A stretch of DNA of 64,000 bases from Hemileia vastatrix (lineage: Eukaryota > Basidiomycota > Pucciniomycetes > Pucciniales > Zaghouaniaceae): the NCBI GenBank assembly GCA_030280995.1, contig JASXTE010000005.1, forward strand, positions 24,655,001 to 24,719,000, in the 5' to 3' direction. The position numbers were made by a program, and so were the translations under genes. Within the stretch, counting starts at the first letter, position 1, and every line of letters begins with the position of its first letter. Of the stretch, positions 6,508 to 59,389 are shown in pieces. The notes beneath the pieces were generated by a model. It ran no database searches. It was given only the letters and a program-made list of their open reading frames with translations, and was not told where the DNA came from.

Positions 6508-6509
6508 GT

Positions 6510-21301: not shown

Positions 21302-21302
<1 letters not shown>

Positions 21303-21332
<30 letters not shown>

Positions 21333-21357
21333 AAGAAGAAGAAGAAGAAGAAGAAGA
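21303..21357 (+). repeat. (AAG)n microsatellite in the Lys-rich hinge of the AP-3 delta copy
   Basis: About 18 AAG triplets encoding poly-lysine. A Lys-rich hinge is expected here in AP-3 delta; the length is expanded. Confidence 0.85.
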
Positions 21358-22470: not shown

Positions 22471-22673
22471 TTCAAAGGTGACTTGAAAATTTAAACTAAA
22501 AAAGAATTTTGAACATTAAAGATTCTTGAAAATTTTATTTAAAAGAGCATTTATAACATTAAATTATGAAAATTAAGCTAATGATGGATAGAGTAAAATA
22601 ATACAGGAAATTAAGATAAAAATTTATGCACAAATATATATGAAAAGTTGAAGTTTAAGATAAATAAAACAAA

Positions 22674-26544: not shown

Positions 26545-27369
26545 TTTGTTTTATTTCTCTAACACTTTAACTGTTCATAATTAATTGTACATAAAATTTT
26601 ATCTTAATTTCTTGCATTTCTTTACTCTATCCATCATTAGTTGAATTTTCATATTTTAATGTTGTAAATTCTTTTTTAAATATAATTTTCAACAATTTTT
26701 AATGTTCAAAATTCTTTTTTAGTGAAATTTTCAAGTCACATATGAAAATCTCTTAATCCCACCCCTGCATTTGATTGAACTAAGGGGCAGGTATCACCAA
26801 AATTATTTCAAGTAAAGAATTTTTAAAGTCTTTTATGAAATTTTGGCAATTCTTCCCCCTGCATTTTATTTTGGAGAAGATACAAGAAGTAAAAAACAAA
26901 ATAAGAAAGGTGAAGAATGAGGAGTTAAAAGGGATTGTGGGGTTGGCAAGTTAATTACAAGCAATGCCAAGGAAGACAAATATATTAGATTAACACCCCA
27001 ATTTCCAGTTAAAAACAACACAAGAGGGTAGAAGTAGTAGTTTAGTTTAGTTATAAGAGGGATGATAATCAAAAGAAGAACAGATGCAACAGCATCTATT
27101 GATTCCATAACAGCTTCCTGCAAGACAAAGATGATTGAAGGGGAAAAGATTTTATGTTTATCTGTGACATGGTATTGTCACAATTAACTTTATGGGTGGT
27201 TTGTTTAGTTATTTTTGTATTTACTGAATGGTTTGTCAAAAAAGTGAAGTGGGGAAGGGAGGGATGGGAAGTGAAGGGAAGGAAGAAAGATGGTAGAAAG
27301 GAGAAGGGAGGGAAGAGGAGAGGAGGTATAAGTGGAAGGGGAAGAGAAAGTATTAAGACCCAGAGGGCA

Positions 27370-27570
27370 ACAGAAAATAATACCAGGTCTAAAGCTAACA
27401 AAAAATTTTTATGACATCACCATGGAGGGTCAACAATACCCCCAGGCAGAAAGCATGAGTATAGAGGAAAAGGACGCCCTCTTAAAAAGATAACTATAAA
27501 AAAGACGTCTCCTCCTCTTCAGGATCAACTGTCCCACCTGGCCAAACAGGTTCTGAAGTTGGATTTGAAA
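27370..27570 (+). pseudogene. Gypsy-B gag N-terminal fragment inside H4
   Basis: Nearly identical to the reverse complement of about 3860-4050: TACCAGGTCTAAAG.TAAC, then the ATGACATCACCATGGAGGG stretch, through to the coiled-coil start (SPPLQDQLSHL.KQVL). It even shares the in-frame TGA found at 4005. No LTR accompanies it, so this is a captured internal piece or the scar of a deletion. Confidence 0.75.
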
Positions 27571-27905
27571 AGAGTTCTGAGAAAGGGGGGAATAGCATTT
27601 ATAGCTGGGTTACGTAGCTTCCTAGTAGAGAGGTGTTTCATAGTTATTGATGGAAGGCTTATGTGATGAAAGAAGTAGGAATTCACCGCCAAATGTGCAG
27701 TTGGGGTGTGTAGATAGAAAAAAAACTTAAGTGTTTTCCACCAAAATTAAGTAGCATAGAATGAGGAAAGACTTAAGTATGGCATTAGCAATTATAAGTC
27801 ATGTGACTTTCTTAAAAATACATCATGTATGTGATGAGTTTGGCATGATGAATTAGGAATCGAAATTGGGGTATAAGAGGTAGGATAATGCGTTATCATG
27901 GATTC

Positions 27906-27937
27906 CTTATCCACTGGCCCTGGGGCTAGTGGATAAG
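27906..27937. repeat. Subterminal palindrome of H4
   Basis: CTTATCCACTGGCCCT followed by GGGGCTAGTGGATAAG, the H4 version of the family palindrome, about 83 bp inside the right end. Confidence 0.75.
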
Positions 27938-28020
27938 CATCTTCCACAATTAATAATGTTGCATCTGGGGAAAAAAAATTCCTGATCCCTAATTGCGGAT
28001 TTATAAAATTTTATACCCCC

Positions 28021-28345
28021 TATTGTCCCTCTTAGTTACTCAATCATGAAGTATCAGCTATACATTACTTATCATTTTATGATTCTCATCTACTGATTTT
28101 TTTGTTTTTAGTTTTTTCAAAATAAAAACTTGATGGTTCTTGATTGAGTTGGAAATTCAGGTATGCTATTTTTTTATAATTGTTTTATTTTTTTAAAGTG
28201 TGTCAGTATGATGTTACATAATTGGGGGATGATGCATCAAGCTTGTTGTTAGAGCATTATTGCCCATCTTAGTTACTCAATCATGTAGTATCAGCTATAC
28301 ATTACTTATCATTGTATGATTTGCATCTACTGATATTTTCATTTT
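28021..28345. repeat. Pair of ~80-bp direct repeats next to H4
   Basis: CTTAGTTACTCAATCATG followed by AGTATCAGCTATACATTACTTATCATT occurs at about 28030 and again at about 28268. A stretch between them (AGTATGATGTTACATAATTGGGGG) resembles 24735-24770 left of H4, so H4 lies inside an older repeat. Confidence 0.6.
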
Positions 28346-40600: not shown

Positions 40601-42671
40601 GGAAGAAAACAGCTTTGATATCCAGATCCAATTTCTCCAAGTAGTTGTCCAATTTTTCAGCTCTGCTTTTTTGAAAGATCACCAATAGGTGTTGCCTCTC
40701 CTTCTTTGAATAATCCAAAAATATGAACTAAAGATCTATGATCTTTCTCTTGGAAAAATAGGTTAAAAATTTAAAGAGAATTTTCCAATGCATCTTAAAT
40801 TTGACACTTTAATCAAATGAGTTTTTTGGTGATGGTGGTAGTTTAAATAAAAGAAGGATGAGAGAAAATTTTTGAAAGAGGATAAAGTAGAGAATATATA
40901 TAATATTGGATCAATATTCACAATTAATTTTTTCATGTATGTTAATAATTAATGTTGACTCACATTTTAATAATAACTAAATACGGATAGATAACTGAAA
41001 GAAGTGCATTATTTTAGAGGCTACATTTGGTGCCAATAAATTAAAATTAGTTCCTTTAATAGTGTGAATGTTAAAAAAATACATTACAATTTTATCCCCT
41101 TATAAAAAAGTATATATATTTTTCTCCTAAATTAAATTTTTTAGCATTGTCTTACATTCTTTCATTCAAAAGAAAAATGAGAAATTTCTATTGAAAAGGG
41201 CTCAATATAAGCTTTGTCTAGAAAATTTGAAACTACTTACAAATATTTTTGAAGAGTTATATTTTTATTAATAAAATTTTTAAAAAGGACTTAAATAGTA
41301 TGGTTTTTTATATATTTGCCAAAATAAAAATGATAATTAAAATAATATTCCAGACCTAGTATACTATGTGTCATTTAAGATATTTCTACTAATAGCAAAC
41401 CTGAATCCCCACCATTCAATGGATCTAGATATAAAATTGAATATTGTGGAATGTTAAGTGTTGTTGCTCAACCATTGCTCAAATTTGGTCCAACTGATGC
41501 TCAACTTAAATCCAAAGCTCTGCTCAAGAAGGGATAAAATGAGGCTCAATTTAGTGCCAATTTTTTTCTCAAAATTTTTTCATATAATTTAAAAACAGTT
41601 TCCTAAAACTTTCACAAAATTCCCGCAATGTTTTCCCAACCTCTCCCTGAAAGTTTCAAAGAGAGGAAACTGATAGCAGAACACCCCCTGATTTCCCATG
41701 GTGCATTACAATAAAAATCTGTATGTTCCAACTTTTCTAGCCCAAGTGGAACCCCTTCTTACCCCTCCTCTACACTCCACTTTAACTTTTTACTTCACCC
41801 AACCCTATTTAATTTCTCCTTTCCCCTCTTTAGCCCATTCTCACCCCTGCCTAACCCCACTAGGCCCCTTTCAAATCCCAGTTTACTTTTTTGTTTTCAA
41901 CCTCACCCCACTCACTACTTTCACACTATATCCCACCTTATTGCTTTTAATCCCACTATTTCAACTCTCTAGCACATGATTTATTATTCAAATTGTCCCT
42001 TTTTCATTTTAGCTTACCTCATTTTCACACTTGGGATTAAAAATGGTGGGAAGGAAAGCAAGAGGATTGATGTGGGATGAGGGGGGTTTAAGGGTAGTAA
42101 AAAGGGGTTTAAAAGTGTGGTGATGGGAGAAAAATGAGTTAGGATGAATGAGGAGGGGAAACAGCTTAGAAGAGTAAAAAATGATGCAGGAGAGGAGGAA
42201 GATGTGAGATTGGAGGAGTTTGGAAAAAAAATGGGGGAGAAAAGTACTGAAAAGAATATTTTTGAAAAAAAAGTAATCAAAAAAAAAGATAATAGATTAG
42301 AAGTCATGAAAAGATTAATGATGTGAAACATATAATAAAAACTTAAATTTTTTTATTTGCCATATGTTTTATTTTCATAAAAATTTGTCCCTCATTTTTT
42401 TGATAAAATTAAGATAAAGGAAAGTTATTTTTTTTAAAAAAAATAATAGCCATGTATTTTTTTTACTAGGAAGATTCTGATATTTGTATAAACTTTCAAA
42501 GTCATACCTATAAATAAGTAAAATTTAAAATTTCATCTAAGAAACATGTATTTTCCTTAATAATTTTTTTTTGATAAAGACTACAAAAAATGGTAACTAG
42601 TAATTTTATGAGAATCAAAATATATTTGTGTAAATTTTCACAATTTTGAATTTTATGAGAAATATCTATTA
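40601..42671. other. AT-rich spacer with a pyrimidine/purine asymmetric block
   Basis: No gene seen. Around 41740-41970 the plus strand is strongly pyrimidine-rich (CCCC/CTTT) and around 42030-42290 strongly purine-rich (GGGG/GAAA), as in an old foldback element. Short frames across these blocks are compositional artefacts. Confidence 0.5.
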
Positions 42672-43044
42672 GGAGGTATCAATGTTGGGGGATCCCCAAT
42701 TAAATTAATTGCAGATAAAAATCCTTATACTCCAATTATCTTCCACAATTATTTTTGCTAATAATTGGGTTATTAGACACTTTACATGTAAATTTTCATC
42801 TATTATCCAACATTTTTCTGCTCAATTTTTCATAACCACATCTTGGACAACTTTCTTTTATAACCACATTTTGCCCAACTTTCTGCCATAACCACATCTT
42901 TGACTACTCTCTAGATATGGCTTCTACCTTGCTGCGCACTCCCATTCTCATCCCATCCTGTTCATTCTATCCACTCAGAATTTTGGCCCATTTCATTTTG
43001 CTATCTCATCTGCTTTTTTCTGCTCCTTTTCATCTTAAATTATC

Positions 43045-44408
43045 TTAACATGCCTTGTAGTCATAGATATTCTCAAATGTTCTTCAAATTTCACTACTCC
43101 CTCTTTCCCCTGAGTTTCTGAGAAATCCAAAACAGTTCAACTGAAAAAAGATGATCATTTCATTCTTATCAACTGGCTAAAAATAAAAAGTTATTATGAT
43201 TCTTGTTTTTTTACTGAGAATAAGACTAAAGTAGGATGCCCCCCTGCATCAAAAGCCAATGGCTATCTTCAAATGGCAAATGAATTAAGAAATAAGACTA
43301 AGGGAAGGATAAATATTTTACCAAAACAGATGTCTGAACTCTTCAAGCATTATTGAGACAAATACAAGAAGGCAAAGACTCTTTCATCTTCTACTGGCTT
43401 TGGTATTTCTGGCCTTGATATCAGTAAGGGCATCAAATCCATAGACAATAAACTTGATTCTTTATGTCTTTACATTAAAGGCATGAATGATCTATTTGGA
43501 GAGGAAGCTGATGTTAATCCTGCAAGAATGTTTTTCTATCTCTAAAAATGATGTCAAAAGAAATCTTTTTCCTTCTTCTTCTACTCAAGCCTCTTCTCAC
43601 TTAACTTCCACAAATTAAGAAATCTTTTCAATAGATACTTATGGCAATATAAACCAACCTTATCTAACTTAAGTATGTTTTTTTTCTTTTATCCTACCAA
43701 TTATTCTTTTTATTTACATTTTCTTATTTCTAAATAGGCTGAAGAAAAAATTCAAAGGCCACAATCAACTGAGTCAGAAGCCAGAAAAAATGATGAGGAA
43801 GAAAATGTGACCTTGAAAAAAAAGAGAATGGCTTCAAGTAGTCTGAATATCTACTCTCAAAGAAGAAGAAAAAGTGATACTTCATCTCCAACCCCTTTTT
43901 CTTCTATCAAAGAATTTTTGGAGAAACATGATGCTGGTAAGTGATACCAAACCTCTTAATAATTTACTCTGATTTTCTTCTAATTTATGTTAACATTTCT
44001 TATCACTCTAGAAAAAATTAAAATCTCTAAAGAGACTCTAAACTTTGAAAAGAAAAATATGAGCTCTCTTTAATGAGGGATGACAGAGTACATGATTTGG
44101 AAGAGAAGAAGTTTTAACTCTCTTTACGGAAGGATGATAGGACACAAGTCTTGGAGAAGAGGAAGTAGAAACTCTCTTTAGGGTAGGATGATAAGGAACA
44201 AGACTTAGAGGAGAAAAAATTCAAGTTATCTCTAAGTATTGAAAAATAAACAAAATAGGAGAAAACATTTCAGCATCAAAACCTCATGGAGCAGATGAAA
44301 TATAAGCTTGATTGTGAGGAAAATTCCAAAAAGAAAGATTTCTTAATAGAATTTCTTAAAGCTAATAAATCTTTTGAGGAAATTGAACGTTTAAAGAAAT
44401 AGTTTGAT
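43045..44408 (+). pseudogene. Myb/SANT-like gene of H3 (badly degraded)
   Basis: Recognisable pieces: KKDDHFILINWLK, then KAKTLSSSTGFG (exon 1), TESEARKNDEEENVTLKKK (exon 2 after an AATAG acceptor near 43737), and the coiled coil with YKLDCEENSKKKDFL (exon 3 after TCTAG near 44011). Multiple stops and small deletions. The most eroded full copy in the window. Confidence 0.65.
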
Positions 44409-44599
44409 GAATCGTATTTTTTATTTCTCTCACACTTCAATGTTTGTAATTAATTGTACATAAATTTTTTTCTTAATTTCCTGTATTTTCTTACTCTATC
44501 CATAATTAGTTGAATTTTCATATTCTAATGTTATTAATTCTCTTTTAAATAATAATTTTCAAGTATTTTTAATGTAAAAAATTCTTTTTTAGTTGAAAT

Positions 44600-45560
44600 T
44601 TTCAAGGCACATTTATAAATTTTCACAATTCCTCCTCTGCATTTGATTGAACTAAGATGTGGGTATCACCAAAAGTCTTTCAAGTAAAGAATTTTGCAAG
44701 TCTTTTTTAAAATTTTGGCAATGCACCCGCTGAACTTTATTGAAGAGGGGATGGGTATCAGCAAAATTTCAAATCAATTTTTTTTATAAGTCTCATATGA
44801 AAATGTGGCAATACCCTCCCTTGGTTTTTATTGAAGAAAGGGGTGGGTATCACCAAAAGTTTTCTAAGTCATCAATTTCAAATGTCAGATTTAAAAATTT
44901 GGCAATACCCCCCTGTATTTTGTTGAATTAAGGGAAGGGTATTATCAAATTTTCAAGTCAAATTTTTTTTAAGTCTGATATGAAAAATTGGCAACGCCTC
45001 CCCCTGAAATTTATTGAATCAAAGAAACAAAATAAAAAAAATTTAAATTTAAAATTTCTACAACCAATTATTTTCACCAGTCCCAATCAAGTTTTCCTAC
45101 TTTATATAATAGCCTTTAGAACAACCTATGAACAGATGCACCATTATATAATAACAGTAATCTATCTTGATGTAACTTTAAAAAAAATTGGAAGAGACTA
45201 ATCCAAAACTAAATGAAAAAAATTAAAATTAAAAACTTCTACAACCAATTATTCTCACCAGTCCCAATCAAGTTTTCCTATTTTATATAATAGCCAGTAG
45301 AACAACCTAAGGCCAGATGCACTATTATATAAAAACATTAATCTATCTTGATGTAACTTTTAAAAGTAATTGGAAGACAATTCCAAAATTAAATGAAAAA
45401 AAAATTAAAAAGGATAAATAAAATTGAAAAAGAGGAAAATAAAAAGGTGTAAATTATAAAAAATAAAAAAGATAGAACTTAAAATAACTAAAAAAAATTG
45501 AATAAAAGAGAAAAAAAAAGAAAAAAATATTTGTAAAAAATATTTAATGATTGAAAAAAT
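44600..45560. repeat. Harbinger Myb-side 3' repeats of H3
   Basis: About five ~95-bp units (GGGTATCACCAAAA...TTGGCAATACCC) to about 45000, then two ~175-bp direct copies with CACCAGTCCCAATCAAGTTTTCC (about 45030-45380), then AT-rich DNA. Reverse-complement counterparts lie in H2. Confidence 0.65.
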
Positions 45561-45609
45561 ATAATATTTTAGTTGCAATACTTGACAGATCTACTAAGAA
45601 CCACTTTTT

Positions 45610-46892
45610 TATCTATATTTATTTTTTTGATTTTTAATACAATAAATAAGGCCTTCATTTATTTGGAATGAACAGCCAAAATGGGTAACTTCTTGACTGG
45701 AAACTAAAGTTGGAGGTTCTTTAGTTGGTTGATGACAATGTTGAGATGAATTCCATATAGCCTCAACTATTATATTGGCACTACCAAAATCAATAATAAA
45801 TTTATGGTCAGGAAAATAAAGGCCATGTCCCTCATCAGAAGAGGGTGATGGAATAGGAACACCAATCTCTTAATTAATATAAGAGAAAATTCCGAATGTT
45901 AGACAATTCTTAGCATTTTTATCTAGATGAACATTGTTGTAGAATCCTTTATAAGTTATGATAACATTAGAACAAAAAACATAAGCATTTATTGCTTCTT
46001 CCCATTAAGGATCAGACCAATTTGGTAAACCAGATTATAAAGCAAGTTGATGGTTTTTTTGAAAAGCTTGAAAACATGATTTTTTAAATCAATTTGCCAA
46101 GAAAATATTAAATGATCCTAAAGAATTCCATCTTTTCAGATCTTCTTCCATTTTCTCCATTTTCAAATTTTTCAATAAAGGATAACTTCCTAAATCATAT
46201 GACAAAATTAAAAATTACATATAATAAAAAAAATATTTACATACCAAAAGAAAATCCTGTATCATATCCTGGTCTCCAACCAAAAACTTTCATGACACCA
46301 GAAATCAGATTTTTATTTGATAAGGTTTGTCAAACAAAAGTCATTTGATAGAGAGTAGAAATTAAGTCAGAAAGCTGTAAAAAACTTCATCCTTTTCCCA
46401 TTAAATGAATGAACTTCTAAGATGAAATGATGCTTCTATCTGTTATTGAAAACAGAAACAATGAGCTCTACACCGCCTTCTGTAAGGTTTTTTATGTTTT
46501 TGTAAAAAAAAATATTCTTAACATTTGATATTGAAGTCTTATAAAATTTGAGATCCTCCAAATGTCCAAAGAATGTTTTGCAAAATATCTTCATCCTAAT
46601 AAATTTTATATTTTAATAAAATTTTGTCTTTGAATTACTTGATTCTTTAGCTGTTTTGATGATTTTCTGCTTTTTATTTTATGGTAAGGAAAGCTTAGAT
46701 TAATTGGGAGAAGGAATAGAATTGAAGGACATTGAAGAGATAGAAAAATTAAAGATAAAGAATAAAAATTTGAATATATTTGATGATTATTCTTGGAGCT
46801 TTCAACATTTGAAGACAAGGAAGAAAGAGAGGATGAAGATGATTCAGAAGAAATTGATGATAATGAAGATGAGTGAGTTAATTTTTCCATAG
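45610..46892 (-). pseudogene. TET/JBP-like 2OG-Fe(II) dioxygenase gene carried by H3
   Basis: Minus-strand translation gives a Ser-rich N-terminus (near 46890-46780), a basic helix (SRKSSKQLKNQVIQRQNF), and a region ending GWRPGYDTGFSFG. An intron 46244-46190 (GTATGT...TTTAG, 55 nt) follows, then SYPLL... and the catalytic core YNNVHLDKNAKNCLTFGIFSYIN. The core ends with GHGLYFPDHKFIIDFG and FGCSFQIN. The HxD iron-binding motif (HLD) is kept. TET/JBP enzymes oxidise 5-methyl-pyrimidines in DNA, and fungal Tet-like proteins of this type are highly expanded in rusts. Several stops and frameshifts make it a pseudogene. It is co-oriented with the transposase and lies at the same place as the AP-3 cargo of H2. 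Confidence 0.72.
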
Positions 46893-47454
46893 TAATTTCC
46901 TGGAAAAAAAATTTATAAAACAAAAAAATTAAAATTAAAAAAAACCCCCAACAATAAAAAATTATCAGTAAAATAATTGAAAAGAAAAAAAAGATTTTTG
47001 TTAAAAAAAAAAAATTGCAAAAAAATCAGTAAAAGTTTTTGAAAAAAATAAAAGTTTAAAATAAAAACCTGAATTATGATTAAAATACCAGGTAAAACAA
47101 ATTCACCAAAAAAAGGAGTAAATAAAAAAAATAAAATTAATTCAGTAAATTAATTTCAAATAAATAAATAAATAAATAAAAATTACTTACTTGCTATTTG
47201 AAATACCTCTTGATGTCATTCAATCCAATTTATTAAAATATAATTTATAAAAAATTGAATTCAGTAAATTTCAGAATAATTAATTATTTGAAAAAACAGA
47301 ATAATTAATTATTTGCAAAAACAAACACAAATAAAAAAAGTAAATTACCTGATTTATTTTGGAAACAGGGGAAAATGTGCAGAAACTAAGGGAAAGAAAA
47401 AAAATTCTGTAAAAAAAATTAAAAAGCAGATATTAGCCTTTTTTTTGCTTCAAA

Positions 47455-48400
47455 ATTCCCCCCAAAAAGTTTCCCTTTACCTCTTCAATCCCCCCTTTAA
47501 CCCTTCTTTACCCCCCCTTTAACCACTCCTTACCTGCCTCAAACCCCCCTTTTATTACCCCTTTACCCCATCTTTATCACCCCTTTACCCCCCCTTTAAC
47601 CTCTCCTTACCCACCTCAAACCTCCCTTTAGTCCCCTTTTATCCCCTCCTTGCCCGCTTCAAACCCCCCCTTCACCCCTTCCATGACCCCCTTAAGCCCC
47701 CCCTTTACCCCCTCAGACCCACCTTAAATCCCCCCTACACCTAACTTATTGAATTCCTAACAATTCAATAAGTTAGTGAAAAATGTCTAATTATCATTCT
47801 CTAACTTATCAAATTGTTAGCAATTAAATAATCTAATGAACAATCATCAGCTATTGTTCATTAATTTATTGAATCACTAATGATTCAATAAGTTAATGAA
47901 CAATATTTCTTGATTTTTCACTAACTTATCAAATTGCGAACAATTTGATAAAGTAATAGACAATTGTTGATAATCATTCATTAACTTATCAAATTGATAG
48001 CGATTTGATAAGTAGGTGCTGGGGGGGGTGTGGAGGAGTTTGAAGGGGGGGTTTGAGGTGGGATTGAGGGGGTAAAGGGGGGGCTTGAGGGGGCCAAGGA
48101 GGGGGTGAAGGGGGGGATTGAGAGGGCCAAGGAGGGGGTGAAGGGGGGGTTGAGGCAGGCAAGGAGGGGGTAAAGGGGAGTTGAGGTGGGCAAGGAGGGA
48201 TTAAAGGGGGGAGTTGGGGTGGGAAAAAAGGGGAGTATGAGGGGTATGGAGGAAGAAAAGGAGGGGGAAAAGGGGATGATGAAGGCGGTAAAGGGGGGGA
48301 CTTGAGGTGGCCAAGAAGGGGAGAAAAGAGGGTATGAAGGCAGACAAGGAGGACGGAAAGGGGATGATGGAGGGTGAAAAAAAAGATAAAACAAAAAAAA
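47455..48400. repeat. Inverted G/C-rich minisatellites enclosing five tandem hairpins
   Basis: The left arm (47455-47740) is made of ~40-bp C-rich units (CCCCCCTTTAACC.CTCCTTACC). The right arm (48010-48370) has their reverse complement (GGGGGGTTGAGGCAGGCAAGGAGG). Between them are five ~60-bp units starting near 47744, 47803, 47862, 47922 and 47984, each with an AACTTAT(T/C)(G/A)AATT...AATT(C/T)(A/G)ATAAGTT inverted repeat. Pro-rich open frames on the minus strand are by-products. Confidence 0.8.
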
Positions 48401-48861
48401 GAAAATTAGTCTAACCTTGAAAACCAAAAGAAAGCACTTACAGGACAAAAAAAAAGAAAAAAAAGCAAATAAAAAAACAACAAAAATGAAAAAATGACTT
48501 ACCTGGTGAGTTGATTTGAGAAAAAAAAAGCAACAAAAATATATGAGGGATGTTTGAGGAGAGGATGAAAATGACATGAGTGATGAATGAAAAAAAAACT
48601 GACAAAATATGCAATTTCATGTTGAGCTGGTAAAAGAAAACCAATGAGCCATCCAAAAAAAAAGATTTTCACCGTAAATTCAATAAAAAAAGAATATGCA
48701 ACAAAAAAATAATAAACCAAGTGAATAAAGTACACAAAATGGGCATTTGGAGAGCACCAAAATAAAATTTTAAAAGTGTTGTGAAGTGAAATTTTAGAGA
48801 GTAATTGGCATTATAATGGAGTGTATGCTAGTTGATTGAATGTTTTGTGTTTCAAGGGAGG

Positions 48862-50031
48862 GAAGAGATGGTTCTGGTTCAGGATCCTCTTCTTCATAAA
48901 GATCATTTCACTCATCCTTTAAAGCAGCTAGGATATTGTGGAGTAAAACGCAAGTCATGATCCAATGATTTGAAGTTTTGATCTCCAATTTTTTTTGAAA
49001 TTTGATTCTGAGCTCCCAAAGACTAGAAAATTGTCCCTTTAAAATACCTATAGTGTGTTTAATCCATACTCTTTATTGGGCAGGTGATAATTAAATTTAT
49101 TTTTGGGGCCATTTTATAAACTTGCACCACAGAAAGCAGGAATAATGTACTTCCCACTTGCATATGCTGAGTCTGAAAGGAGGTACTGAGATTCATCAAA
49201 TTATGAGTCTGGGGTTTGAGAAATCCTCATTCTTTGGAAGACAAAAGAGTCATGACATGATCCAGGGCAGCCACTATTAAAAGCAATAAATTTTTTATTG
49301 AAATCACATATAAGTTGAATGGCAATAGAGAATCTAGAAAGAAGATAAAATTTTAATTCATGAATGATGAGAAATTGGAGAAGATTTTGAATTAAACTTT
49401 TTTTGCAATCAAAATAATTGTTCCCATCATGAGCAGGCTTTTGACTCAAAGGAATAGTTGTGCCATCAACATAACCTACACAGCCAGGGAAACCTTTAGC
49501 TTTCATTACTTGAGAGGATTAAAGTTTCTGTTCTGAAGTTAGCCAAGAAAGTGTTTGAGACTTGAGGGAAAGGATAGTAATCATACAGCTTTTGGTGTAT
49601 AGTATTACTGCACCATATCCTATGTTAAATATATTATCCAAACATCTTACAGAAGCACCGTCTACATTTGAGCCAAAGTGACATAGTGCAACAGCAAGTT
49701 GAATGGCAGGATTACCCTGTTTGTTATGGGGATTGTTATGAAAGATAGGATGTTCAGAGATGAGTTGATAAAGTTTTAAGAAAGAATAGGGGTAAGTTCT
49801 AAATAGTTGAGTAAAGTTTAGTATAGGAATGTTGAGAATGTAGCAGAGATCATATCATGGATCATGATAAAGACTTGGCCCCCTGGAAATGAGTTAAAAC
49901 TTTTTAGAATGAAAACACAAATAGGCTAAAGCATCTTCCAAATCAGAGTCATATTTATAGTAAAGAACTAAAAGTAAAGTGATAGCATTCATAGTGGAGT
50001 AAATTAGCTGTCTATTAGAGAGGTGCTTCAT
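48862..50031 (-). pseudogene. PIF/Harbinger transposase of H3
   Basis: ATG at 50031 (minus), collinear with H2 and H5. Clear blocks include VDGTTIPLSQKPAHD (first catalytic Asp, about 49460), the stretch KFIAFNSGCPGSCHDSFVFQRMRIS (about 49220-49290), then LLSDSAYAS (second Asp). Stops interrupt it (for example at 49201 after TPDS) and the Glu region is frameshifted. Less deleted than H5, more mutated than H2. Confidence 0.8.
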
Positions 50032-50313
50032 TGTTTTTGGTAGTATAGGCTTTTGGTAGAAGGTTTAGGTGATGAGTGGGAAGTGTGAATTCACAGCCAA
50101 ATGTGCAGTTGGGGTGTTTAGATTGAAAAAAAACTTAAGTATTTGCCACCAAAATTAAGTAGCATAGATTTAGGATATCCTTAGGGATGGCATCAGCAAT
50201 TATAAGCCAGGTGACTTTCTTAAAAATCCACCATGGATAAGATGAGTTTGGGATCAGGAGTTAGGAATGGAAATTGGGCTATAAGAGGCAGGATAATTCA
50301 TTATAGTGGATTC

Positions 50314-50345
50314 ATTATCCACTAGCCCTGGGGCTAGTGGATAAG
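50314..50345. repeat. Subterminal palindrome of H3
   Basis: ATTATCCACTAGCCCT followed by GGGGCTAGTGGATAAG, about 83 bp inside the transposase-side end. Same element as in H2, H4 and H5. Confidence 0.75.
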
Positions 50346-50431
50346 AATCTTTTGCATTTAATAATGTCTGATCCAGTGAAAAAAAATTCCTGATCCCTGA
50401 TTGCAGATGCCTGAACATTGATACCCTCTTA

Positions 50432-50799
50432 TCAATAAATAAAAATTCTTGATAACTCTTATAGGATTGGATAATTTATTTTCTTAATTTGATATAAATC
50501 TTCTTTAAATTTAATGATGCTTTAAAAAATATTTAATTTTCCTCATTTTATTTTATGTGATCTGACTTTGCTTTTTTTAATATATCACACTATATCATAC
50601 TGTCTTATATTAAATTATATTTTATTTCATTTCACTGAATGTTAATTTATTTAATTCAAATAAAAAAAATTTTATTTTAATTTTTTTTACTCTACAATAT
50701 TTTATTCAATTACATATTAAATTAAATTAATTTTCTTATTTTCATTCAAAAGGTGACATTATATGTGCAAATAACAGTCTTTAAATTCTCAAAATGAAC
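50432..50799. other. AT-rich spacer
   Basis: No gene or element ends seen. Confidence 0.6.
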
Positions 50800-51790
50800 A
50801 GGTGAACACAGATTCATGACTGTAGAATAGAGTTTGCTACTCATTTTTAGGCATGTGGACTCTGATCTACAGCTGTACATCAAAGTTCAAAACCCAATGT
50901 TGTGCATGTTAACCCTTATCTTTTGCTATACATCAGAGTAACACATGAAATTTTTTTCATGTGAACTCTGATCTATGGCCATACATCAGAGTTCACCACC
51001 CATTTTTTCCATGTGTACTATGATCTTTGTCCAAACATCAGAGTATCACACCCAATTTTTTGTATGTGGGCCCTGATCTATGCCATACATCAGAGTTCAC
51101 CAAACATTTTAATGCATGTGTAACCTGATCTTCAGCCAAACATTAAAGTACCACATCCAATTTTTTGTATGTGAGCCCTGATCTATGGCCATACATTAGA
51201 GTACCACATCCAATTTCACACATATGAACCCTGTTCTAATGCCATACATCAGAGTTCACCACCCATTTTTATGCATGTGTGCCCTAATCTTTGGCAAAAC
51301 ATCAGATTAACACATTCAATATTTTACTTGTGAACTCTGATCCATGGCCATACATCAGAGTTCACCAACCAGTTTTATGCATGTAAACCCGTATTTTCGG
51401 CCATACACCGGAGTACCACATCCAATTTTTTGCATGTGAGCTCTGATCTACAGCCATACATCAGAGTTCACCACCCAATTTTATGCATGTGTACCCTGAT
51501 CTTCAGCCAAAAATCAGAGTACCACTTCTAATTTTTGTATGTGAGCCCTGATCTATGGCCATACATCAGAGTACCACATCCAATTTCATGCATGTGAACC
51601 CTGATCTATGGCCATACATCAGAGTACCACATCCAATTTCATGCATGTGAACACGGATCTATGGCCATACATCAGAGGACCACATCCAATTTAGTTCATT
51701 TGAACTCCGATATATGGCTGTAAATCAGAGTTTACAAGTCAATTTTAACCAAATTGATGCTGTTATATGGCTATACAGCAGCATCTATCA
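50800..51790. repeat. 53-bp satellite with a palindromic core
   Basis: About 18-19 units, for example at 51551 and 51604 (exact 53-bp spacing). Each has ACTCTGATC TATGGCCATA C ATCAGAGT, nearly a 28-bp palindrome around the perfect decamer TATGGCCATA, plus a linker CC(A)CATCCAATTT(C/T)ATGCATGTGAA. Units vary most at the linker. No genes. Confidence 0.88.
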
Positions 51791-52324
51791 AATTGAATAA
51801 AATGAATTAAATGAAATTAAGACTTATTATAATGTAATTTAATATAAAAAAACAGAAAAATAAGTTTAATTACTAGAATTAAAAAAAACAAATGGTATAA
51901 AATGAGATAGAAGAAAACAAAACATTATAATATATTTTAAAAAGGAATGATTTAAAGTGAAATAAAATAAAGTAGGGGGTATCAATGTTGACCGATCCGC
52001 AATTAAATTAATTGCAGAAAATAATCTGCATACCCCAATTATCTTCCGCAATTATTTTTGCTAATAATTGGGTTATTAGACACTTTACGTGTCAATGTTC
52101 ACCTCTTATCTGACATTTTTATCCTCAATATTTCATAACCACATCTTGGACAACTTTCTGGATATCCCAGCCTTCTACCTTGCTGCGCACTTCCATTCTC
52201 ATCCCATCCTGTTCATTCTATCCGCTCAGAATTTCTCCCCATTTCATCTATTTGATTCTGCTCCTTTTCATCTCGCTATTTCATCTGCTTGTTTCTGCTC
52301 CTTTTCATCTTCATTTATAATAAA

Positions 52325-53722
52325 ATGCCTTGTCATCCTAGATCTTCTCAAAGGCAGCCATCACCCAGTTGTTCTTCAATTCCCACTACCTCCTCTTTCC
52401 CCCGCTCAGCCAAGAAATCAAAGACTGTTCAATTAAAAAAAGATGATCATCTCATTCTTATCAACTGGCTGAAAACCAAATCTAACTATGATTCTTGTTT
52501 TGGTACTGAGTATGCCACTAAAGTAGGACGGCCCCCCACATCAAAAGTTAATGGCTATCTTCTAATGGCAAATGAATTACGCAATAAGACCAAGGGAAGG
52601 ATTGATCTTTTGCCTAAACAGATGTCTGAACGCTTCAAGCATTATCGAGCAAAATACAAGAAGGCAAAGGCTCTTTCATCTTCCACTGGTTTTGGGGTTA
52701 CTGACATTGATATAACTAAGGGTATAAAATCCATAGACAATAAACTTGATTCTCTATGTCCTTAATTTAAAGAGATGGATGCAATTTTTGGAGAGCGAGC
52801 CGATGTTAATCCTGTAAACATGTTGGATGGAGAAGATCCTATCTCCGAACATGATGTGGAAGCAAATCTTTTCCCATCCTCTTCCTCCACTCAAGCCTCC
52901 CCTCTTCTAAATTCTACGAATCTAGATAGCTTTGCTATTGATCCTATTGGCGATTTAACCCAACCCAATCTAACTCAGGTCTGTTTCTTTTATCTTATCA
53001 ATTCTATTTTTTTATTTACTTATCTTTTTCTTATTTCTTAAAAGGCTGATGAACAAACCCAGGATCCTCAATCAACTGAGTCTGAAGCTAGTGACAATGA
53101 TGAGGAGGAAAATGCTACGTTGAACAAAAAGAGAAGGGCTTCAACTAGTCTAAATTTCCTCTCCCAAAGAAGACGAAAAAGTGATACTTCATCACAAACA
53201 CATTTTTCTTCGGTGGAACAGTTTTTAGAGAAACGTGATGCTGGTAAGTGATATCATACCTCTTATTACTTTACTCTGCTTTTCTTCTACTTTATGTTAA
53301 TTTTTATTCTCACTCTAGAACAAGTGTAAATTGCTAAAGAGACACTGAGCTTTGAAAAGAAGAAATATGAGCTCTCTTTAAGGAGGGATGACAGAGTACA
53401 AGATTTGGAAGAGAGGAAGTATGAGCTCTCCTTACGGAAGGATGATTGGATCCAAGATTTGGAGGAGAAGAAGTTTGAGCTCTCTTTACAGAAGGATGGT
53501 AGGGCCCAAGATTTGGAGGAGAAGAAGTTTGAGTTAACTCTTAGTATTGAAAAATCCAAAAATAAGGAAAAAACACTCGAGCATCAAAACTTAATGGAAC
53601 AGATGAAGTATAAGCATGATCTCCAAGAAAGTTCTAAAAAGAAAGATTTCTTGATCGAATGCATTAAAGCAAACAAATCTGTTGAAGAAATAGAACGTTT
53701 AATGAAATTTTTTGTTGACTAG
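52325..53722 (+). pseudogene. Myb/SANT-like Harbinger partner protein of H5, three exons, two stops
   Basis: Exons 52325-52978, 53045-53243 and 53319-53722 (654 + 199 + 404 nt = 419 codons exactly). Introns begin GTCTGT and GTAAGT and end AAAAG and TCTAG. Start chosen at MPCHPRSS. Residues 38-125 form the Myb/SANT-like DNA-binding domain (KKDDHLILINWLKTKSNYDSCFG...KVNGYLLMANEL...RFKHYRAKYKKAKAL). Exon 2 is acidic then basic (NKKRRAS, QRRRKSD, a likely nuclear signal). Exon 3 is a coiled coil of four near-repeats (YELSLR.D.R.QDLEE). Only two nonsense changes, TAA at 52763 (TAC in H4) and TAA in EQV*IAKE (GAA elsewhere), so inactivation is recent. Expected to bring transposase to the element ends in the nucleus. 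Confidence 0.85.
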
Positions 53723-53829
53723 TTTCTTTTATTTCTTTCACACTTCATGTGTTCATATTTATTTGTACATAAATTTTACAATTATTTTCTGTATTTCTTG
53801 AAATATCGTATTTTAATGTTAAATATTCT

Positions 53830-54270
53830 TTTTTTAAATAAAATTTTCAAGTCTCCTTTGAAAATTTGACAATCCCCCACCCCTGGATTTTTTTGAAGTA
53901 AGGGGTGGGTATCACAAAAATTCTTTCATGTCATTAATATTGAAAGTTTTATATGAAAATTTGGCTTTACTACCCCCTGCATTTTACCGGTATCCTAAAA
54001 ATTCTTACATGTCAAGAATTTCACAAGTCTTATAAAAAATTTTGGCACAACCCCCCATGGATTTTATTGAAGTAAGGGACGGGTATCACAAAAATATTTA
54101 CAAGTCAAAAAAATTCTATATCTGTTTAAAAAAATTGGCAATACTCTCCCCTGCATTTTATTGAAGCAAGGGGTGGGTATCACCAAAATTTTTCTAAGTC
54201 ATCAATTTCACATGTCAGATTTGAAAATTTGGCAATACCCCCCCCCCTGCATTTTATTGAAGTAAGGGGT
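53830..54270. repeat. Harbinger Myb-side 3' repeats of H5
   Basis: About five ~95-bp units with AAGGGGTGGGTATCAC.AAAATT and TTTGGCAATAC-CCCC, as in H2 and H3. Confidence 0.7.
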
Positions 54271-54572
54271 GGAAGTCATCTAAATTTAATATAATTACAT
54301 AAATTATTAAATAAATATCTAATATATATCAATTTCCCTAGTTTAAAGTAATGACAATCCCTCAAGCCAAAATGCAGACCAAGTCGAGAAACATAAGTTT
54401 GGGACTTTCTACAGGTATAGGAAAGAGGAACCCCATGAAACAAATATATGTTATCATGATTACCTGTTATACAACACAAGGTCGATGGCTCATCACATTA
54501 CTTGAGAAAATTGATATATAAAAAATATTTATTAAAAATTTATGGAAAAATATAAAATTTTTGATGACAACT

Positions 54573-55201
54573 CTAATCCCCATACTTTTTGGATCTAGAT
54601 AAAGTTTTTTTAAATCGAATAACTTTACCTTCTTTCTTTACCTTATTGATTCTTTGTATCAACTTATTACTGATTTGAAATGAGCAACCGAAATGAGTGA
54701 AATTTTGACAGGATTTCAAACCAGGAGGAGCTTTGGTCGTTTGATGATTATCCTTAGAAGAATTCCAAATAGTTTTGATGATACCATTTCCCAAACCAAA
54801 ATCAATGATGCACCGGTGGTCTGGAAAATATAAACCATGTCCTTTGATTTTAGCTGGAGATGGTATTGGGTGGCCAGTTATCAGATTGATATATGAGAAT
54901 ATTCCAAAAGTAAGAAAATTGGCATCATTCCTATCGATATGAATCCTATTGTGGAATCCAGAATGAGTGATAATAACATTAGAAAATAAAAGATATTCGT
55001 GGCTGATATCTTCCAATTCGGAGTCACACCAATTCGGTATTCCAACTTTGGTTGCAAGTTCATGATTTTTTTCAAATGCTTTATTACAGAGCTTGTTGAG
55101 TTGAAAAGCAAGAAAAGAGTCAAAGGAAGGTAGAGTGTCCCATAAGCAAAAATCTTCATCTTTTTGAGCTTTAGTGATATTCTTGACCAACAAATATATG
55201 C
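54573..55201 (-). pseudogene. TET/JBP-like 2OG-Fe(II) dioxygenase, last exon, in H5
   Basis: An uninterrupted 206-codon frame without an ATG at its start, entered from a splice acceptor (ATATAG|GC, exon starts 55201) at the same position as the H3 intron. Catalytic HxD is HID (His85, Asp87 of the open frame), preceded by SNVIITHSGFHNR and followed by NFLTFGIFSYIN. Then GHGLYFPDHRCIIDFG, the candidate distal His150 (DNHQTT), and FGCSFQIS. The C-terminus is basic. Upstream exons seen in H3 are not present at 55250-55760, so the gene looks 5'-truncated, although the catalytic part is intact. Predicted to oxidise 5-methylcytosine in DNA if expressed as part of a longer transcript. Co-oriented with the transposase. 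Could be a KDZ-associated type Tet-like protein recruited into a Harbinger. Confidence 0.75.
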
Positions 55202-55310
55202 CTATATAATTGAAATGCCTAGATAATAATCATATAAGAGTTTCAGAATCCTTATCCTATAAATATGCAATATAAAAATGTGAAATAAGACAAGTGAAAT
55301 TTGGAAAAAA

Positions 55311-55625
55311 GGCTCAACTTCAAAGGTCAAAATCTCAGCAACCACTGAACCTAATTCAAACCTGTTTGTGGAAAATGAAAGATATGCTTTAGTAGAATCT
55401 TCAGTTAAAGGACATGCGATTTAAATAAACCTAACCCTAATTTGTTACATAAAAAAGTGAAATAAAAATTTAAATTGGGAAAAAAAAGGCTCAACTTTAA
55501 CGGTCAATATCTCAGCAACCACTGAATCAAATTCAAATCTGTTTGCAGGAAATGAAAGGTAGCCTTCAGGAAAATCTTCAGTAAAAAGAACATTAGATTT
55601 GAATAAACCTAACCCTAATTCCGAG
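55311..55625. repeat. Direct duplication of ~180 bp upstream of the H5 TET exon
   Basis: GGCTCAACTT.AA.GGTCAA.ATCTCAGCAACCACTGAA... occurs at about 55311 and 55490, each ending ATAAACCTAACCCTAATT. It occupies the place where the missing TET exons would be expected. Confidence 0.75.
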
Positions 55626-56464
55626 TCTGATTTTCAAAATTTTACAAAAACTTGAAAAGTGGTAATGAAGATGAGATCAAAAGGAGTTTTATAAGTTCAC
55701 TGTTATCCAGATAAGAGTCATACATATATTTAAGTATGAAGTTTTCATAAAAGGAATGAGATATCATATAGGCATGAAAAAAAGGAGATGAAACTTACCT
55801 TGATTGAAAAGTAGGAAAAATAGAGTGAGAAAGATTGATGTTGGAATTGTGGGGAAATTGAATATGGAGTAAGTGAAATGCATAAAGAATGTGCAATGTA
55901 TGTGTTTCAATGAAATGGAGCCAAAAAAAAGTGAAATAAGGGAAAGGGGGGATAATGACAATGCCAAGGAGGGATGAAGAGTAGGGTGATGGAGCTAAAA
56001 AATAAAGTAAAGAGGGAGAGAAAAAAAAGGTTAATTATACCATTGAAATCCAAAATAACCACTTACAAAAAAAATTTAGATAAAAAAAATAAAATAAACA
56101 GAAAAAAACAAAAAAAATTATAATTAGTAATCAAAAAATCAAAAAAAAGAATAAAATGACTTACCTGGAGAGATGAGATGACAAAATGAATGAAACCAAA
56201 TTGTTTGAGGGATGTTGGAGGAGAATAGGAAAAGGATATGAGGGATGAATGAAAAAAAAAATCACTGACAAAATATGCAATTTCAGAAAATATCCAATTT
56301 CATGTTGAGCTGGTGAAAGAAAACCAATGAGCCATCCAAAAAAAAAGATATTCACCGTAAATTCAAAAAAAAAAATGAATATGCAACAAACCAAAATACA
56401 AAACCAAGTGATTAAAGTACACAAAGAGGACATTTGGAAAGTATGAAAACATAAAAATTAAAAA

Positions 56465-57097
56465 TTAAAAGGGTGAAGAGAAATGTTGGAGAGTAATTGC
56501 AGGCTTTTGACTCAAAGGGATGGTTGTGCCATCAACAAAACCTACACAGCCAGGGAAACCTTCAGCTTGCATTACTTGAGAGGATTCAAGTTGCTGTTCT
56601 GGAGTTGGCCAAGCAAGAGTTTGAGACTTGAGGGAAAGGATAGCAATCATACAGCGCTTGGTGTATAATATCACGGTACCATATCCTATGTTAAAGAGAT
56701 TATCCAAACGTCTTATGGCAGCACCATTTCCATTTGAGCCAAAGCGACATAGAGCAACAGCAAGTTGGATGGCAGGATTACGCTGTTTGTTATGAGAATT
56801 GTTATGGAAGATAGGATGATCGGAGATGAGTTGATAAAGTTTGAAGAAAGAATCGGGAGAAGTTCTAAAAAGTTTTGTGAAGTTTAAATGAGGAATGTTG
56901 AGAATGGAGGCCAGATCATATCGGGGATCATGATAAAGATTTGTCCCCCTGGTGATGATGTAACGCTTTTTGGAAAGAAAACACATATAAGCTAAAGCAT
57001 CTTCCAAATCAGAGTCAGATTTATAGTAAAGAACTAAAAGAAAAGTAATAGCATTCATTGTTGAGTGAAGTAGCTTCCTAGTAGAGAGGTGTTTCAT
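56465..57097 (-). pseudogene. PIF/Harbinger transposase of H5, catalytic C-terminus deleted
   Basis: Open from ATG 57097 for 210 codons: MKHLSTRKLL, DLEDALAYMCF, HDPRYDLASIL, AVALCRFGSNGNGAAIRRLDNLFNIGYGT, ending at the first catalytic block FVDGTTIPLSQKPA. It then jumps to sequence that in H2 and H3 lies ~600 bp further on (ITLQHFSSPF), with a GC microhomology at the junction. Asp2 and Glu are gone. The N-terminal half lacks any stop, so it is the cleanest copy of this part and could act as a truncated protein or repressor. Confidence 0.85.
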
Positions 57098-57361
57098 TGT
57101 TGCCAGTGGAAGGGTTATGTGATGAGGGAAGTGGGAATTCACCGCCAAATGTGCAGTTGGGGTGTGTAGATAGAAAAAGAACTTAAGTGTTCGCCACCAA
57201 AATTAAGTAGCATAGAGTGAGGAAATACTTAAGGATGGGATCAGCAATTATAAGTCATGTGACTTTCTTAAAAATCCATCATGGATGAGATGAGTTTGGG
57301 ATCAGGAATTAGGAATGGAAATTGGGGTATAAGAGGCGGGATAATGCATTATCGTGGATTT

Positions 57362-57393
57362 CTTATCCACTAGCCCTGGGGCTAGTGGATAAG
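57362..57393. repeat. Subterminal palindrome of H5
   Basis: CTTATCCACTAGCCCT followed by GGGGCTAGTGGATAAG, one mismatch at the centre, 83 bp inside the right end. Confidence 0.8.
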
Positions 57394-57479
57394 AATCTTC
57401 CGCAATTAATAATGTCTGATCCCGGGAAAAAAAATTCCTGATCCCTAATTGTGGATCCCTGAACATTGATACCCCCTAA

Positions 57480-58380
57480 TGAATTTCTTATAAAATAAAA
57501 TATTATTATATAACACGTAATCTAACATAACTCAATAAAATATAATGCAATACAATATAATATATTAAAATTCAATCTAATTTGATTTAATGAAATAAGT
57601 AAAATGAGTATCATAAAATATGATAAAATAAAGAAAAACAAATTCAATTTAAAAAATTATAAGATATAACATAAAATAAATTTATACTGGATAAAAAATT
57701 TAATTTTAAATTCAATATGAAATTTAATATGTATATGGAATTTAATGTTGCATATGCATATTCACATTAAATATGAATTTTGCATATGCATATTCATTAT
57801 GATAATGCATATGCATATTCAATATGATTTTGCATATGAATATGCAATATAAATTTTTATATGCATATTCATTTTTGAAAGAATATTCTAAATCATTTTC
57901 ATTATATATATGAATTATCATTTTACATTTACATACCAAATACCACTTTGCAAGTGAATATTTGATTTCCCTTTTCATTGCTCAAAATAATTTTACATGA
58001 TTGCCAAATATCACTGAGCGAATCAAAAAAATTCATTTTATATTTGTTTTCTGAACTGCATAGATTGAAAAATTCTGACAAAGAAATCTAAACAATATTA
58101 AATAGTTAATCATGGTTTTTAATATGTTTCAATATAATTTAAATAAGTCTTAAATTAGAGTACAATAATTACTTGAAAAATCAAAAATTTCACTTGGGTT
58201 TTCAGCTCCATCTTGAACTATTATTTGAAAGACTGAGTCACAATTATAAGCTAATGGTGTGCAGTGTTTGGAATGATTTCTGAAACTTTTTTCATTCAAA
58301 ATTTAAGATGAGTTCATTCAAATTTCATTATGATGCCAGAAAAGATTCAGCTAGGTTATTAAAATAGTTTAAGCTGGTTG
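57480..58380. other. AT-rich spacer with (CATATGCATATT)-like repeats
   Basis: 57740-57880 is an imperfect array of GCATATGCATATTCA(A/T)TATGA, self-complementary in many places. No gene seen. Confidence 0.55.
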
Positions 58381-59386: not shown

Positions 59387-59389
59387 GTA

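What the first reader, a model, noticed from the sequence alone, without database searches (positions are those of the whole stretch)
45610..55201. PIF/Harbinger transposons carrying a TET/JBP-like DNA-demodifying dioxygenase
Seen: H3 (45610-46892) and H5 (54573-55201) both carry, between the Myb and transposase genes and inside intact terminal repeats, a gene with the HxD core of Tet-like 2OG-Fe(II) oxygenases (HLD, HID). Known: fungal TET/JBP genes are expanded and linked with KDZ (Kyakuja-Dileera-Zisupton) transposons. I know of no described Harbinger association. Inferred: the element may carry its own tool to oxidise or remove 5-methylcytosine and escape silencing, which fits the CpG decay seen in neighbouring elements.
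Basis: partly seen in the sequence, partly recalled or inferred. Interest (0 to 1): 0.87.

Follow-up and report, generated by a model that had tools for sequence, protein, structure and literature searches.

The report
Rust transposons carrying a TET-like gene
These are mobile DNA elements of a rust-like fungus that carry a TET-like gene for an enzyme of the kind that removes DNA methyl marks; such elements were already described in print in 2025, and what this case adds is that the gene appears to be swapped between elements like a cartridge and that both copies in this window are broken.

Summary
H5 (51974-57477) and H3 (42671-50429) are PIF/Harbinger-superfamily (PHIS) elements with a Tet-like dioxygenase gene (PF20515, E 5.9e-28 in H5) between a third gene and the transposase. 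It is systematic: 15 of 15 sampled terminal-repeat pairs (5-8 kb apart) enclose transposase and third gene, 11 of 15 a TET. Kojima 2025 (PMC12730594) already describes TET+ Harbinger elements ("PHISTA") in rusts. Neither window copy is whole: H5 lost TET exon 1 and the transposase's DDE part; H3 has stop codons in all six gene pieces checked. A copy without such breaks was found elsewhere (L027). TET is under purifying selection (exon 2 dN/dS 0.16-0.25, 6 pairs). Two additions: (1) transposase and TET trees conflict and one element is a mosaic, so the TET region has been exchanged between element families; (2) paralogous empty sites show that the apparent "TA" target duplication is a 3-bp AWT, with ends starting AGGGGG, as reported for Pangu/IS5. 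I found no sign that TET+ copies are spared CpG decay. DNA demodification remains inferred.

The parts
51974..57477 (+). H5: TET+ PHIS transposon copy; ends AGGGGGTATCAATGTT../..AACATTGATACCCCCT
   Evidence: outer A/T by the model
51971..51973 (.). H5 left target duplication (AGT; the right side reads AAT, one mismatch)
   Evidence: model
57478..57480 (.). H5 right target duplication (AAT)
   Evidence: model
51974..52005 (+). H5 left terminal inverted repeat (first 16 bases identical to the right one)
57446..57477 (-). H5 right terminal inverted repeat
54573..55201 (-). H5 Tet-like dioxygenase, exon 2 only; splice acceptor kept, exon 1 lost, no Met codon
55217..56065 (-). segment (~850 bp, approximate borders) that stands in place of TET exon 1 in the H5-type copies
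56465..57148 (-). H5 transposase, N-terminal part; DDE part missing
52325..52765 (+). H5 third protein, N-terminal part (in-frame stop at its end); sub-threshold Myb/SANT-like hit
53405..53722 (+). H5 third protein, C-terminal part, charged repeats
42671..50429 (+). H3: older, degenerate TET+ element
46243..46606 (-). H3 TET exon 1 (matched part; 2 stops)
45624..46178 (-). H3 TET exon 2 (matched part; 4 stops)
48782..50100 (-). H3 transposase (stops in both halves); the open piece 49201-49506 matches DDE_Tnp_4
43078..44411 (+). H3 third protein, degenerate
16238..24506 (-). E2: related TET-less element (transposase and third gene)
24789..28021 (+). E3: related TET-less, internally deleted element

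Best explanation
H5 and H3 are defective members of a very abundant TET-carrying group of PIF/Harbinger-superfamily (PHIS) DNA transposons in a rust-like genome. SHOWN: full-length copies are about 7.3-7.6 kb, with ends AGGGGGTATCAATGTT, a 3-bp AWT target duplication, a third protein gene on one strand, and on the other a two-exon Tet-like gene and a DDE transposase. The TET shows purifying selection, and its region has a different history from transposase and third gene, as if exchanged between element families. H5 belongs to a derived, multicopy form that lost TET exon 1 (and, in the 5.5-kb form, the DDE domain). INFERRED: the transposase moves complete and incomplete copies alike by cut and paste. 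The TET enzyme oxidises 5-methylcytosine (or another base) at element DNA, easing silencing so that transposase can be expressed and can act. Because it can work on any copy in the nucleus, copies with truncated or no TET can spread on the enzyme of others.
For: Family match. TIR motif 6573 times, reversed control 0. 15/15 pairs with transposase and third gene, 11/15 with TET. Exon 1 present in 4 of the 11; a GT..AG intron seen in three of these (L017, L018, L022) and at the same place in H3. Exon 2 w 0.16-0.25 in 6 of 6 pairs of copies with exon 1; H5-H3 aa identity 54% against at most 42% in 2000 neutral simulations. H5-like exon 2: the 150 scored places are all at least 95% identical. Exon 1: 150 scored places, 17 of them with one equal score and no stop. 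One fetched copy (L027) shows both ends and neither stop nor frame break in six gene pieces; L029 the same with only one end inside the fetched stretch. AWT duplication and empty sites. Mosaic and conflicting trees.
Against: Of 15 sampled copies 4 have no TET and 7 only a truncated one, so most copies spread without a whole TET of their own. CpG decay does not differ between TET+ and TET-less copies. No sequence hit of the TET to a solved TET structure; the AlphaFold model was unusable. The 8 PF00145 methyltransferase matches lie on four contigs, three of them known to be short (43-159 kb), none on a contig known to be chromosome-sized, by a search without regard to introns: a source of 5mC is not shown here. 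No expression or methylation data.
Confidence: 0.7

Rival explanations
1. The TET gene is a passenger with no present use to the transposon: captured once, passed around by recombination, now decaying.
For: TET-less and 5'-truncated copies amplify (4/15 and 7/15). CpG decay is not lower in TET+ copies. Exon 2 of truncated copies shows a weaker constraint, median w 0.44, range 0.25-1.27.
Against: Exon 2 w 0.16-0.25 between copies with exon 1, below the transposase of the same copies (medians 0.50 and 0.72). 17 of 150 exon 1 places share one equal score without stops.
Confidence: 0.15
2. The enzyme acts on another modification (6mA, thymine, or a glyceryl-type modification of 5mC) or on RNA, not on 5mC silencing.
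For: Kojima 2025 says another activity cannot be excluded and that CcTET also acts on 6mA (section 3.4 read). The substrate cannot be read from the sequence.
Against: CpG depletion and CpG-biased transitions in these elements fit a 5mC-rich host; a 2025 survey found DNMT5 in all and DNMT1 in nearly all Pucciniomycotina genomes it studied (passages of PMC12210899), though the same paper reports no RIP-like signature there.
Confidence: 0.2
3. The TET genes are independent nested insertions with their own ends inside Harbinger elements.
For: Some copies lack the gene and the region has been exchanged between families.
Against: Between third gene and transposase, in one orientation, in 11 of 11 TET+ sampled copies. 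The exchanged stretch includes non-coding DNA, with borders near the tandem-repeat array (about 2.0-2.3 kb of L017) and in low-complexity DNA (3.7-5.5 kb). I did not run a separate search for terminal repeats at the gene's own borders.
Confidence: 0.04
4. Transposase, not TET, is what was exchanged: gene conversion homogenised the ends and transposase of different families and left TET as the vertical marker.
For: The trees conflict either way. H3 and H5 families share ends, third gene and transposase (74-91% DNA identity) but differ in TET.
Against: Third gene and transposase, at opposite ends of the element, give the same grouping (80% and 79% aa between L017 and H3; 59% and 60% between L017 and L031); one exchange of the middle needs fewer events than two of the sides.
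Confidence: 0.2

Closest known systems
TET+ PHISTA (Harbinger superfamily) of rusts, Kojima 2025, PMC12730594
   Same: Harbinger-superfamily transposase + TET/JBP gene + a third protein; flanks read TA..TA; TET-less relatives; proposed escape from silencing; PHISTA TETs fall in more than one TET cluster (P2, P6), so exchange was already implied.
   Different: Another genome (nearest database transposase 51% identical, P. coronata). The target duplication is 3 bp AWT by empty sites, not TA. Third protein gives a repeated sub-threshold Myb/SANT-like hit, where Kojima reports no Myb/SANT domain. Exchange shown inside one superfamily and one genome, plus a multicopy form with truncated TET.
Pangu group of PHIS transposons / bacterial IS5 (Han et al. 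2015, PMC4482050; passages and the Pangu section read)
   Same: Target duplication ANT; terminal repeats usually starting AG or GG; transposase plus a gene without a recognised domain.
   Different: Carries TET as a further gene; transposase placement relative to Pangu not tested here, and Kojima puts PHISTA near or inside Nuwa with weak support.
KDZ (Kyakuja-Dileera-Zisupton) transposons with TET/JBP
   Same: Fungal DNA transposons that carry TET/JBP genes.
   Different: Different transposase superfamily (here DDE_Tnp_4) and, for Zisupton, 8-bp target duplications (as stated by Kojima).

Membership tests
Tet-like 2OG-Fe(II) oxygenase (PF20515) / TET-JBP | profile match above the curated cut-off | tested here: met
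   H5 98.7 bits, L017 exon 2 106.3 bits, cut-off 27
Tet-like 2OG-Fe(II) oxygenase (PF20515) / TET-JBP | HxD and distal His of the iron triad | tested here: met
   H85 and H150 invariant, D87 nearly invariant in 10 aligned sequences; which His is the distal ligand is my reading of the alignment
Tet-like 2OG-Fe(II) oxygenase (PF20515) / TET-JBP | fold like solved TET enzymes | tested here: inconclusive
   AlphaFold model pLDDT 45.8, no fold search run on it; no sequence or profile hit to a TET in the PDB
Tet-like 2OG-Fe(II) oxygenase (PF20515) / TET-JBP | oxidises 5mC | not testable with these tools
   no enzyme or methylation data
PIF/Harbinger (PHIS) superfamily | DDE_Tnp_4 transposase | tested here: met
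   L017 E 7.8e-26, H3 open piece E 2.7e-7; the H5 copy has lost this part
PIF/Harbinger (PHIS) superfamily | terminal inverted repeats with a short target duplication | tested here: met
   20 of 20 copies with both perfect ends show it as TA, 18 of 20 as AWT
PHISTA (Kojima 2025) | TA dinucleotide target duplication | tested here: not met
   TA flanks 20 of 20, but empty sites miss 5 bases in 7 of 10 paralog rows (4 insertions), the other rows giving 3, -4 and -2 and none the 2 expected; AWT is identical left/right in 18 of 20
PHISTA (Kojima 2025) | transposase + TET + third protein | tested here: met
   11 of 15 sampled copies hold all three, 7 of these with truncated TET
PHISTA (Kojima 2025) | third protein without Myb/SANT domain | tested here: inconclusive
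   Myb_DNA-bind_4 below cut-off in 3 of 5 and 3 of 5 proteins, best E 0.0019; model pLDDT 66, no PDB fold match at E <= 0.001
PHISTA (Kojima 2025) | transposase groups with the Puccinia TET+ Harbinger families | not testable with these tools
   the Repbase families are not held; nearest named proteins are P. coronata 51% and P. striiformis 50%
Pangu | ANT target duplication | tested here: met
   AWT in 18 of 20; empty sites
Pangu | terminal repeats usually starting AG or GG | tested here: met
   AGGGGG; definition
Pangu | transposase in the Pangu/Harbinger2 clade | not tested
   no reference sequences at hand
KDZ | KDZ transposase | tested here: not met
   the L017 transposase matches DDE_Tnp_4, DDE_Tnp_1 and Plant_tran only

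The most novel reading that the evidence does not exclude
The TET gene sits in an exchangeable cassette site of a Pangu/IS5-like (ANT-duplicating) rust transposon: families with the same transposase and third gene carry different TET versions, a truncated TET or unrelated DNA between a tandem-repeat array and a low-complexity stretch. The published 'TA-duplicating' PHISTA group may be an ANT group whose terminal A and T were counted as target. The anti-silencing enzyme would then be a shared good of the nucleus, swapped between elements and exploited by copies that have lost it.
Probability: 0.5. Interest if true: 0.62.

Novelty: new member of a known kind. Interest (0 to 1): 0.45.

Why it matters
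It places another large rust-like genome among those whose DNA transposons carry a putative DNA-demodifying enzyme, and gives selection evidence that the enzyme has been useful to the element. The recombination evidence shows how such a gene passes between elements, and the corrected target duplication (AWT rather than TA) would change where these elements sit among Harbinger relatives. The mix of full, truncated and TET-less copies in one genome makes a question testable with long reads: do elements need their own TET, or do they share it?

Tried and rejected
Structure of the TET: AlphaFold on 10 sequences gave pLDDT 45.8, so no fold search was run. Structure of the third protein: pLDDT 66, Foldseek against the PDB gave nothing at E <= 0.001. 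A new first exon for truncated TETs: only micro-frames of 22 and 28 codons with an in-phase GT, present in 8 of 8 closely related copies, which proves nothing. Protection from CpG decay by TET: no difference, small counts (6 of 16 against 6 of 10 C/G transitions at CpG, p 0.42); one search used 15 copies and left out the more diverged L010, L013, L015, L018 and L021. TA target duplication: held at first, dropped after empty sites. Fourfold-site test of TET against transposase: 14 of 16 (overlapping) pairs at p < 0.05; L021-H5 (0.23) and L018-H5 (0.13) not. AU test of TET trees: p 1.6e-5 with a row set that included L002, which did not group with H3; with L002 and P0002 left out and L004, L008 added, p 0.0075 and support 79/96. 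The clades were named after the identities had been seen. L022 was first taken for a whole copy (no stops) but its TET exon 1 runs over two frames, so it is not. Host methyltransferases: PF00145 matched 8 places on four contigs (C228, C561, C74 short; length of C350 not seen), perhaps not of this organism; not settled. Nested insertion: not tested by a search of its own; rejected on position and on the mosaic pattern.
Full report
WHAT IS THERE. The window lies in a 747.6-Mb genome of 791 contigs; the window is 32.9% GC. 'Rust-like' is my inference from the nearest named relatives of the proteins, mostly Puccinia and Austropuccinia. H5 runs from 51974 to 57477, with ends AGGGGGTATCAATGTT and their inverse; H3 from 42671 to 50429, with imperfect ends. 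Two related TET-less elements lie upstream, E2 (16238-24506) and E3 (24789-28021). The H5 frame at 54573-55193 (-) matches PF20515, 98.7 bits, E 5.9e-28. The H3 gene is a homologue: 54% amino-acid identity over 185 codons. The PF20515 search rang in 0 of 14 named control genomes.

IS IT MORE THAN CHANCE. The terminal motif GGGGGTATCAATGTTNNNNGATC occurs 3286 times forward and 3287 reverse, 0 for the reversed control. Of the 100 places listed (contig C2 up to 12.3 Mb) I took by eye all 15 facing pairs 5-8 kb apart, without regard to content, and three short pairs (434, 448 and 1013 bp). All 15 long ones hold transposase and third gene; 11 hold TET, 4 do not (L012, L016, L019, L020). In all 11 TET lies between the two other genes, on the transposase's strand. 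The search with the H5 TET scored 150 of 15,019 candidate places, all at least 95% identical; 28 of the 150 have a stop, 24 TGA, 3 TAG, 1 TAA by my count of the listing.

ANATOMY. Four of the 11 (L017, L018, L021, L022) keep TET exon 1. In L017 it starts at an ATG and ends ..GYSLG|GTATGT, and exon 2 follows ..ATATAG; the intron is seen in L017, L018 and L022 and at the same place in H3. The other 7 of 11, and H5, have about 850 bp of other DNA in place of exon 1, with the break inside the intron; the H5 exon 2 frame holds no Met codon. H5, L009 and L023 (5.5 kb) also lack the DDE part of the transposase. In the TET-less copies other DNA of about 0.75-1.7 kb stands between about 1.8-2.15 kb and 5.0 kb of the reference L017. 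The L017 transposase lies in an open frame of 454 codons, DDE_Tnp_4 E 7.8e-26. Exon 1 of L017 gave 150 scored of 6,698 candidate places at 88% or more, 17 of them with one equal score. Of four fetched from that list (L027-L030), L027 and L030 show both ends in the fetched stretch; L027 and L029 have neither stop nor frame break in six gene pieces, L028 and L030 one stop each in exon 2, and L028 also broken frames. Of the first sample, L017 has one stop (third gene) and L022 a frame break in exon 1. H3 has stops in all six pieces. The stretches between the pieces were not checked.

SELECTION. H5 and H3 exon 2 differ at codon positions 65/44/101; neutral simulation at the same DNA distance gives 34% (sd 2.5, maximum 41.6 of 2000) amino-acid identity against 54% observed. 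Pairwise Nei-Gojobori ratios among the four copies with exon 1 (6 pairs): exon 2 0.16-0.25, exon 1 0.36-0.72, third protein N part 0.30-0.49 (5 usable), C part 0.19-0.61, transposase halves medians 0.50 and 0.72 (up to 1.4). Truncated copies: exon 2 median 0.44 (27 usable of 28 pairs, 0.25-1.27). Within the H3 family (H3 and L001-L008) it is 0.78 (32 usable of 36, 0.18-1.83), near neutral. So the TET was under constraint while lineages diverged, and copies decay after insertion.

EXCHANGE OF THE TET REGION. Between L017 and H3 the transposase is 79% and the third protein's N part 80% identical, TET exon 2 only 56% and exon 1 47%. Between L017 and L031, which represents a third family, transposase is 60%, third protein 59%, but exon 2 82% and exon 1 63%. 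Fourfold sites of L017 against H3: TET 26/53, transposase 21/126, p 1.5e-5; 14 of 16 overlapping pairs tested gave p < 0.05, L021-H5 and L018-H5 did not. The transposase tree puts the H5 and H3 families together (100/100), with H3 and E2 nested among H5-family rows, and rejects H5 with L031 (AU p 5.4e-7); the TET tree does the reverse (H5 with L031 100/99; H5 with H3 rejected, p 1.6e-5). With other rows support falls to 79/96 and p is 0.0075. L021 goes with H3 and E2 by transposase (97/88) and with the L031 family by TET (90/92 and 90/91). The clades were named after the identities were seen, and long branches are present. Along L017 in 250-base steps, 1-2000 and 5500-7425 resemble H3 (74-91%), 2250-3750 resembles L031 (70-88%) while H3 gives 66-73% or short matches. 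The left border falls in or near the tandem-repeat array, the right one in low-complexity DNA. I infer that the middle was exchanged, not the two sides.

TARGET DUPLICATION. All 20 copies with both perfect ends read A-W-T-A|GGGGG..CCCCC|T-A-W-T. Under 'TA' the flanks match 20 of 20; under a terminal A/T with a 3-bp AWT they match 18 of 20, the variable base included (P 2e-4 for 18 of 20 at 0.5; L012 and L025 differ). Empty paralogous sites decide: 7 of 10 rows, from 4 insertions (L013, L017, L020, L025), lack 5 bases; the other three rows gave 3, -4 and -2; none gave the 2 expected for TA. L015 shows the same gap against two paralogs. H5 itself reads AGT and AAT, H3 does not match. Han et al. 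2015 give ANT for Pangu and IS5 (section read).

OTHER TET LOCI. The eight best PF20515 places (L001-L008) all carry both exons, exon 2 54-58% identical to H5; 4 of 8 show a third-gene or transposase piece in the 1.5-kb flanks held. Of four more chosen by me from the 150 (L031-L034, for open frames), third-gene pieces occur in 4 of 4 and transposase in 2 of 4. The degenerate TET at 58521-59476 has no transposon ends that I could recognise.

FUNCTION. Single-copy differences in 15 young copies show more CpG transitions than other C/G transitions: full TET (6 copies) 6/654 against 10/6469 (odds ratio 6.0), truncated (5) 21/488 against 15/4840 (14.5), no TET (4) 6/448 against 4/4404 (14.9). Full against none: p 0.42. 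CpG o/e is 0.36-0.42 in the four TET-less copies and 0.37-0.42 in L017, L022, L027 and L030; 0.23-0.41 in the other TET+ copies of the sample but L021; 0.07-0.08 in old TET+ copies (L021, H3) and 0.11-0.15 in old TET-less ones (E3, E2). So the idea that the enzyme spares its own copy is not supported; acting on all copies is not excluded.

WHAT IS KNOWN. Kojima 2025 (PMC12730594; abstract, introduction, sections 3.1 and 3.4, part 1 of 2 of the discussion, figure legends and passages read; figures and supplements not seen) describes TET+ 'PHISTA' Harbinger elements in five Puccinia species and Austropuccinia psidii, TET transfers between superfamilies, and the escape-from-silencing idea. A 2026 review cites it (passages of PMC13297926). 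Searches for other reports; among the papers listed (not all that matched) I saw no other TET-Harbinger report, and the library lacks most subscription journals. In the passages read I saw no statement of an ANT duplication for PHISTA or of truncated-TET forms; that is a limited claim.

Noticed in passing
window 58521-59476 (+): A third, degenerate two-exon TET (exon 2 37-46% to the others; 4 stops in exon 2) outside H5, without recognisable transposon ends.
   Followed up: partly
window 44616-45044 and 53862-54287: Tandem units of about 92-96 bp inside H3 and H5, many with a GGGTATCA motif like that of the element's ends; the exchange border of the TET region falls in or near this array.
   Followed up: partly
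window 50802-51781: A 53-bp tandem repeat array with inverted-repeat units (GAACTCTGATCTATGGCCATACATCAGAGTTC) between H3 and H5.
   Followed up: no
L024, L025, L026: Short elements of 434-1013 bp with the same perfect ends, MITE-like.
   Followed up: partly
window 47490-48400: A C-rich and a G-rich stretch forming long inverted arms (193 nt, 71% complementary) inside H3.
   Followed up: no
L035-L038 (contigs C228, C561, C74) and contig C350: All eight PF00145 (C5 methyltransferase) matches lie on four contigs, three of them 43-159 kb long (C350 length not seen), none on a contig known to be chromosome-sized; contamination or exon fragmentation not settled.
   Followed up: partly
window 6579-11413 and 32572-37384: Two gag-pol retroelement stretches with CpG o/e 0.69 and 0.60, above every DNA transposon copy measured (0.07-0.42).
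   Followed up: no
window 15534-16007: A long simple-repeat open frame (FHISYFI units), apparently a minisatellite.
   Followed up: no
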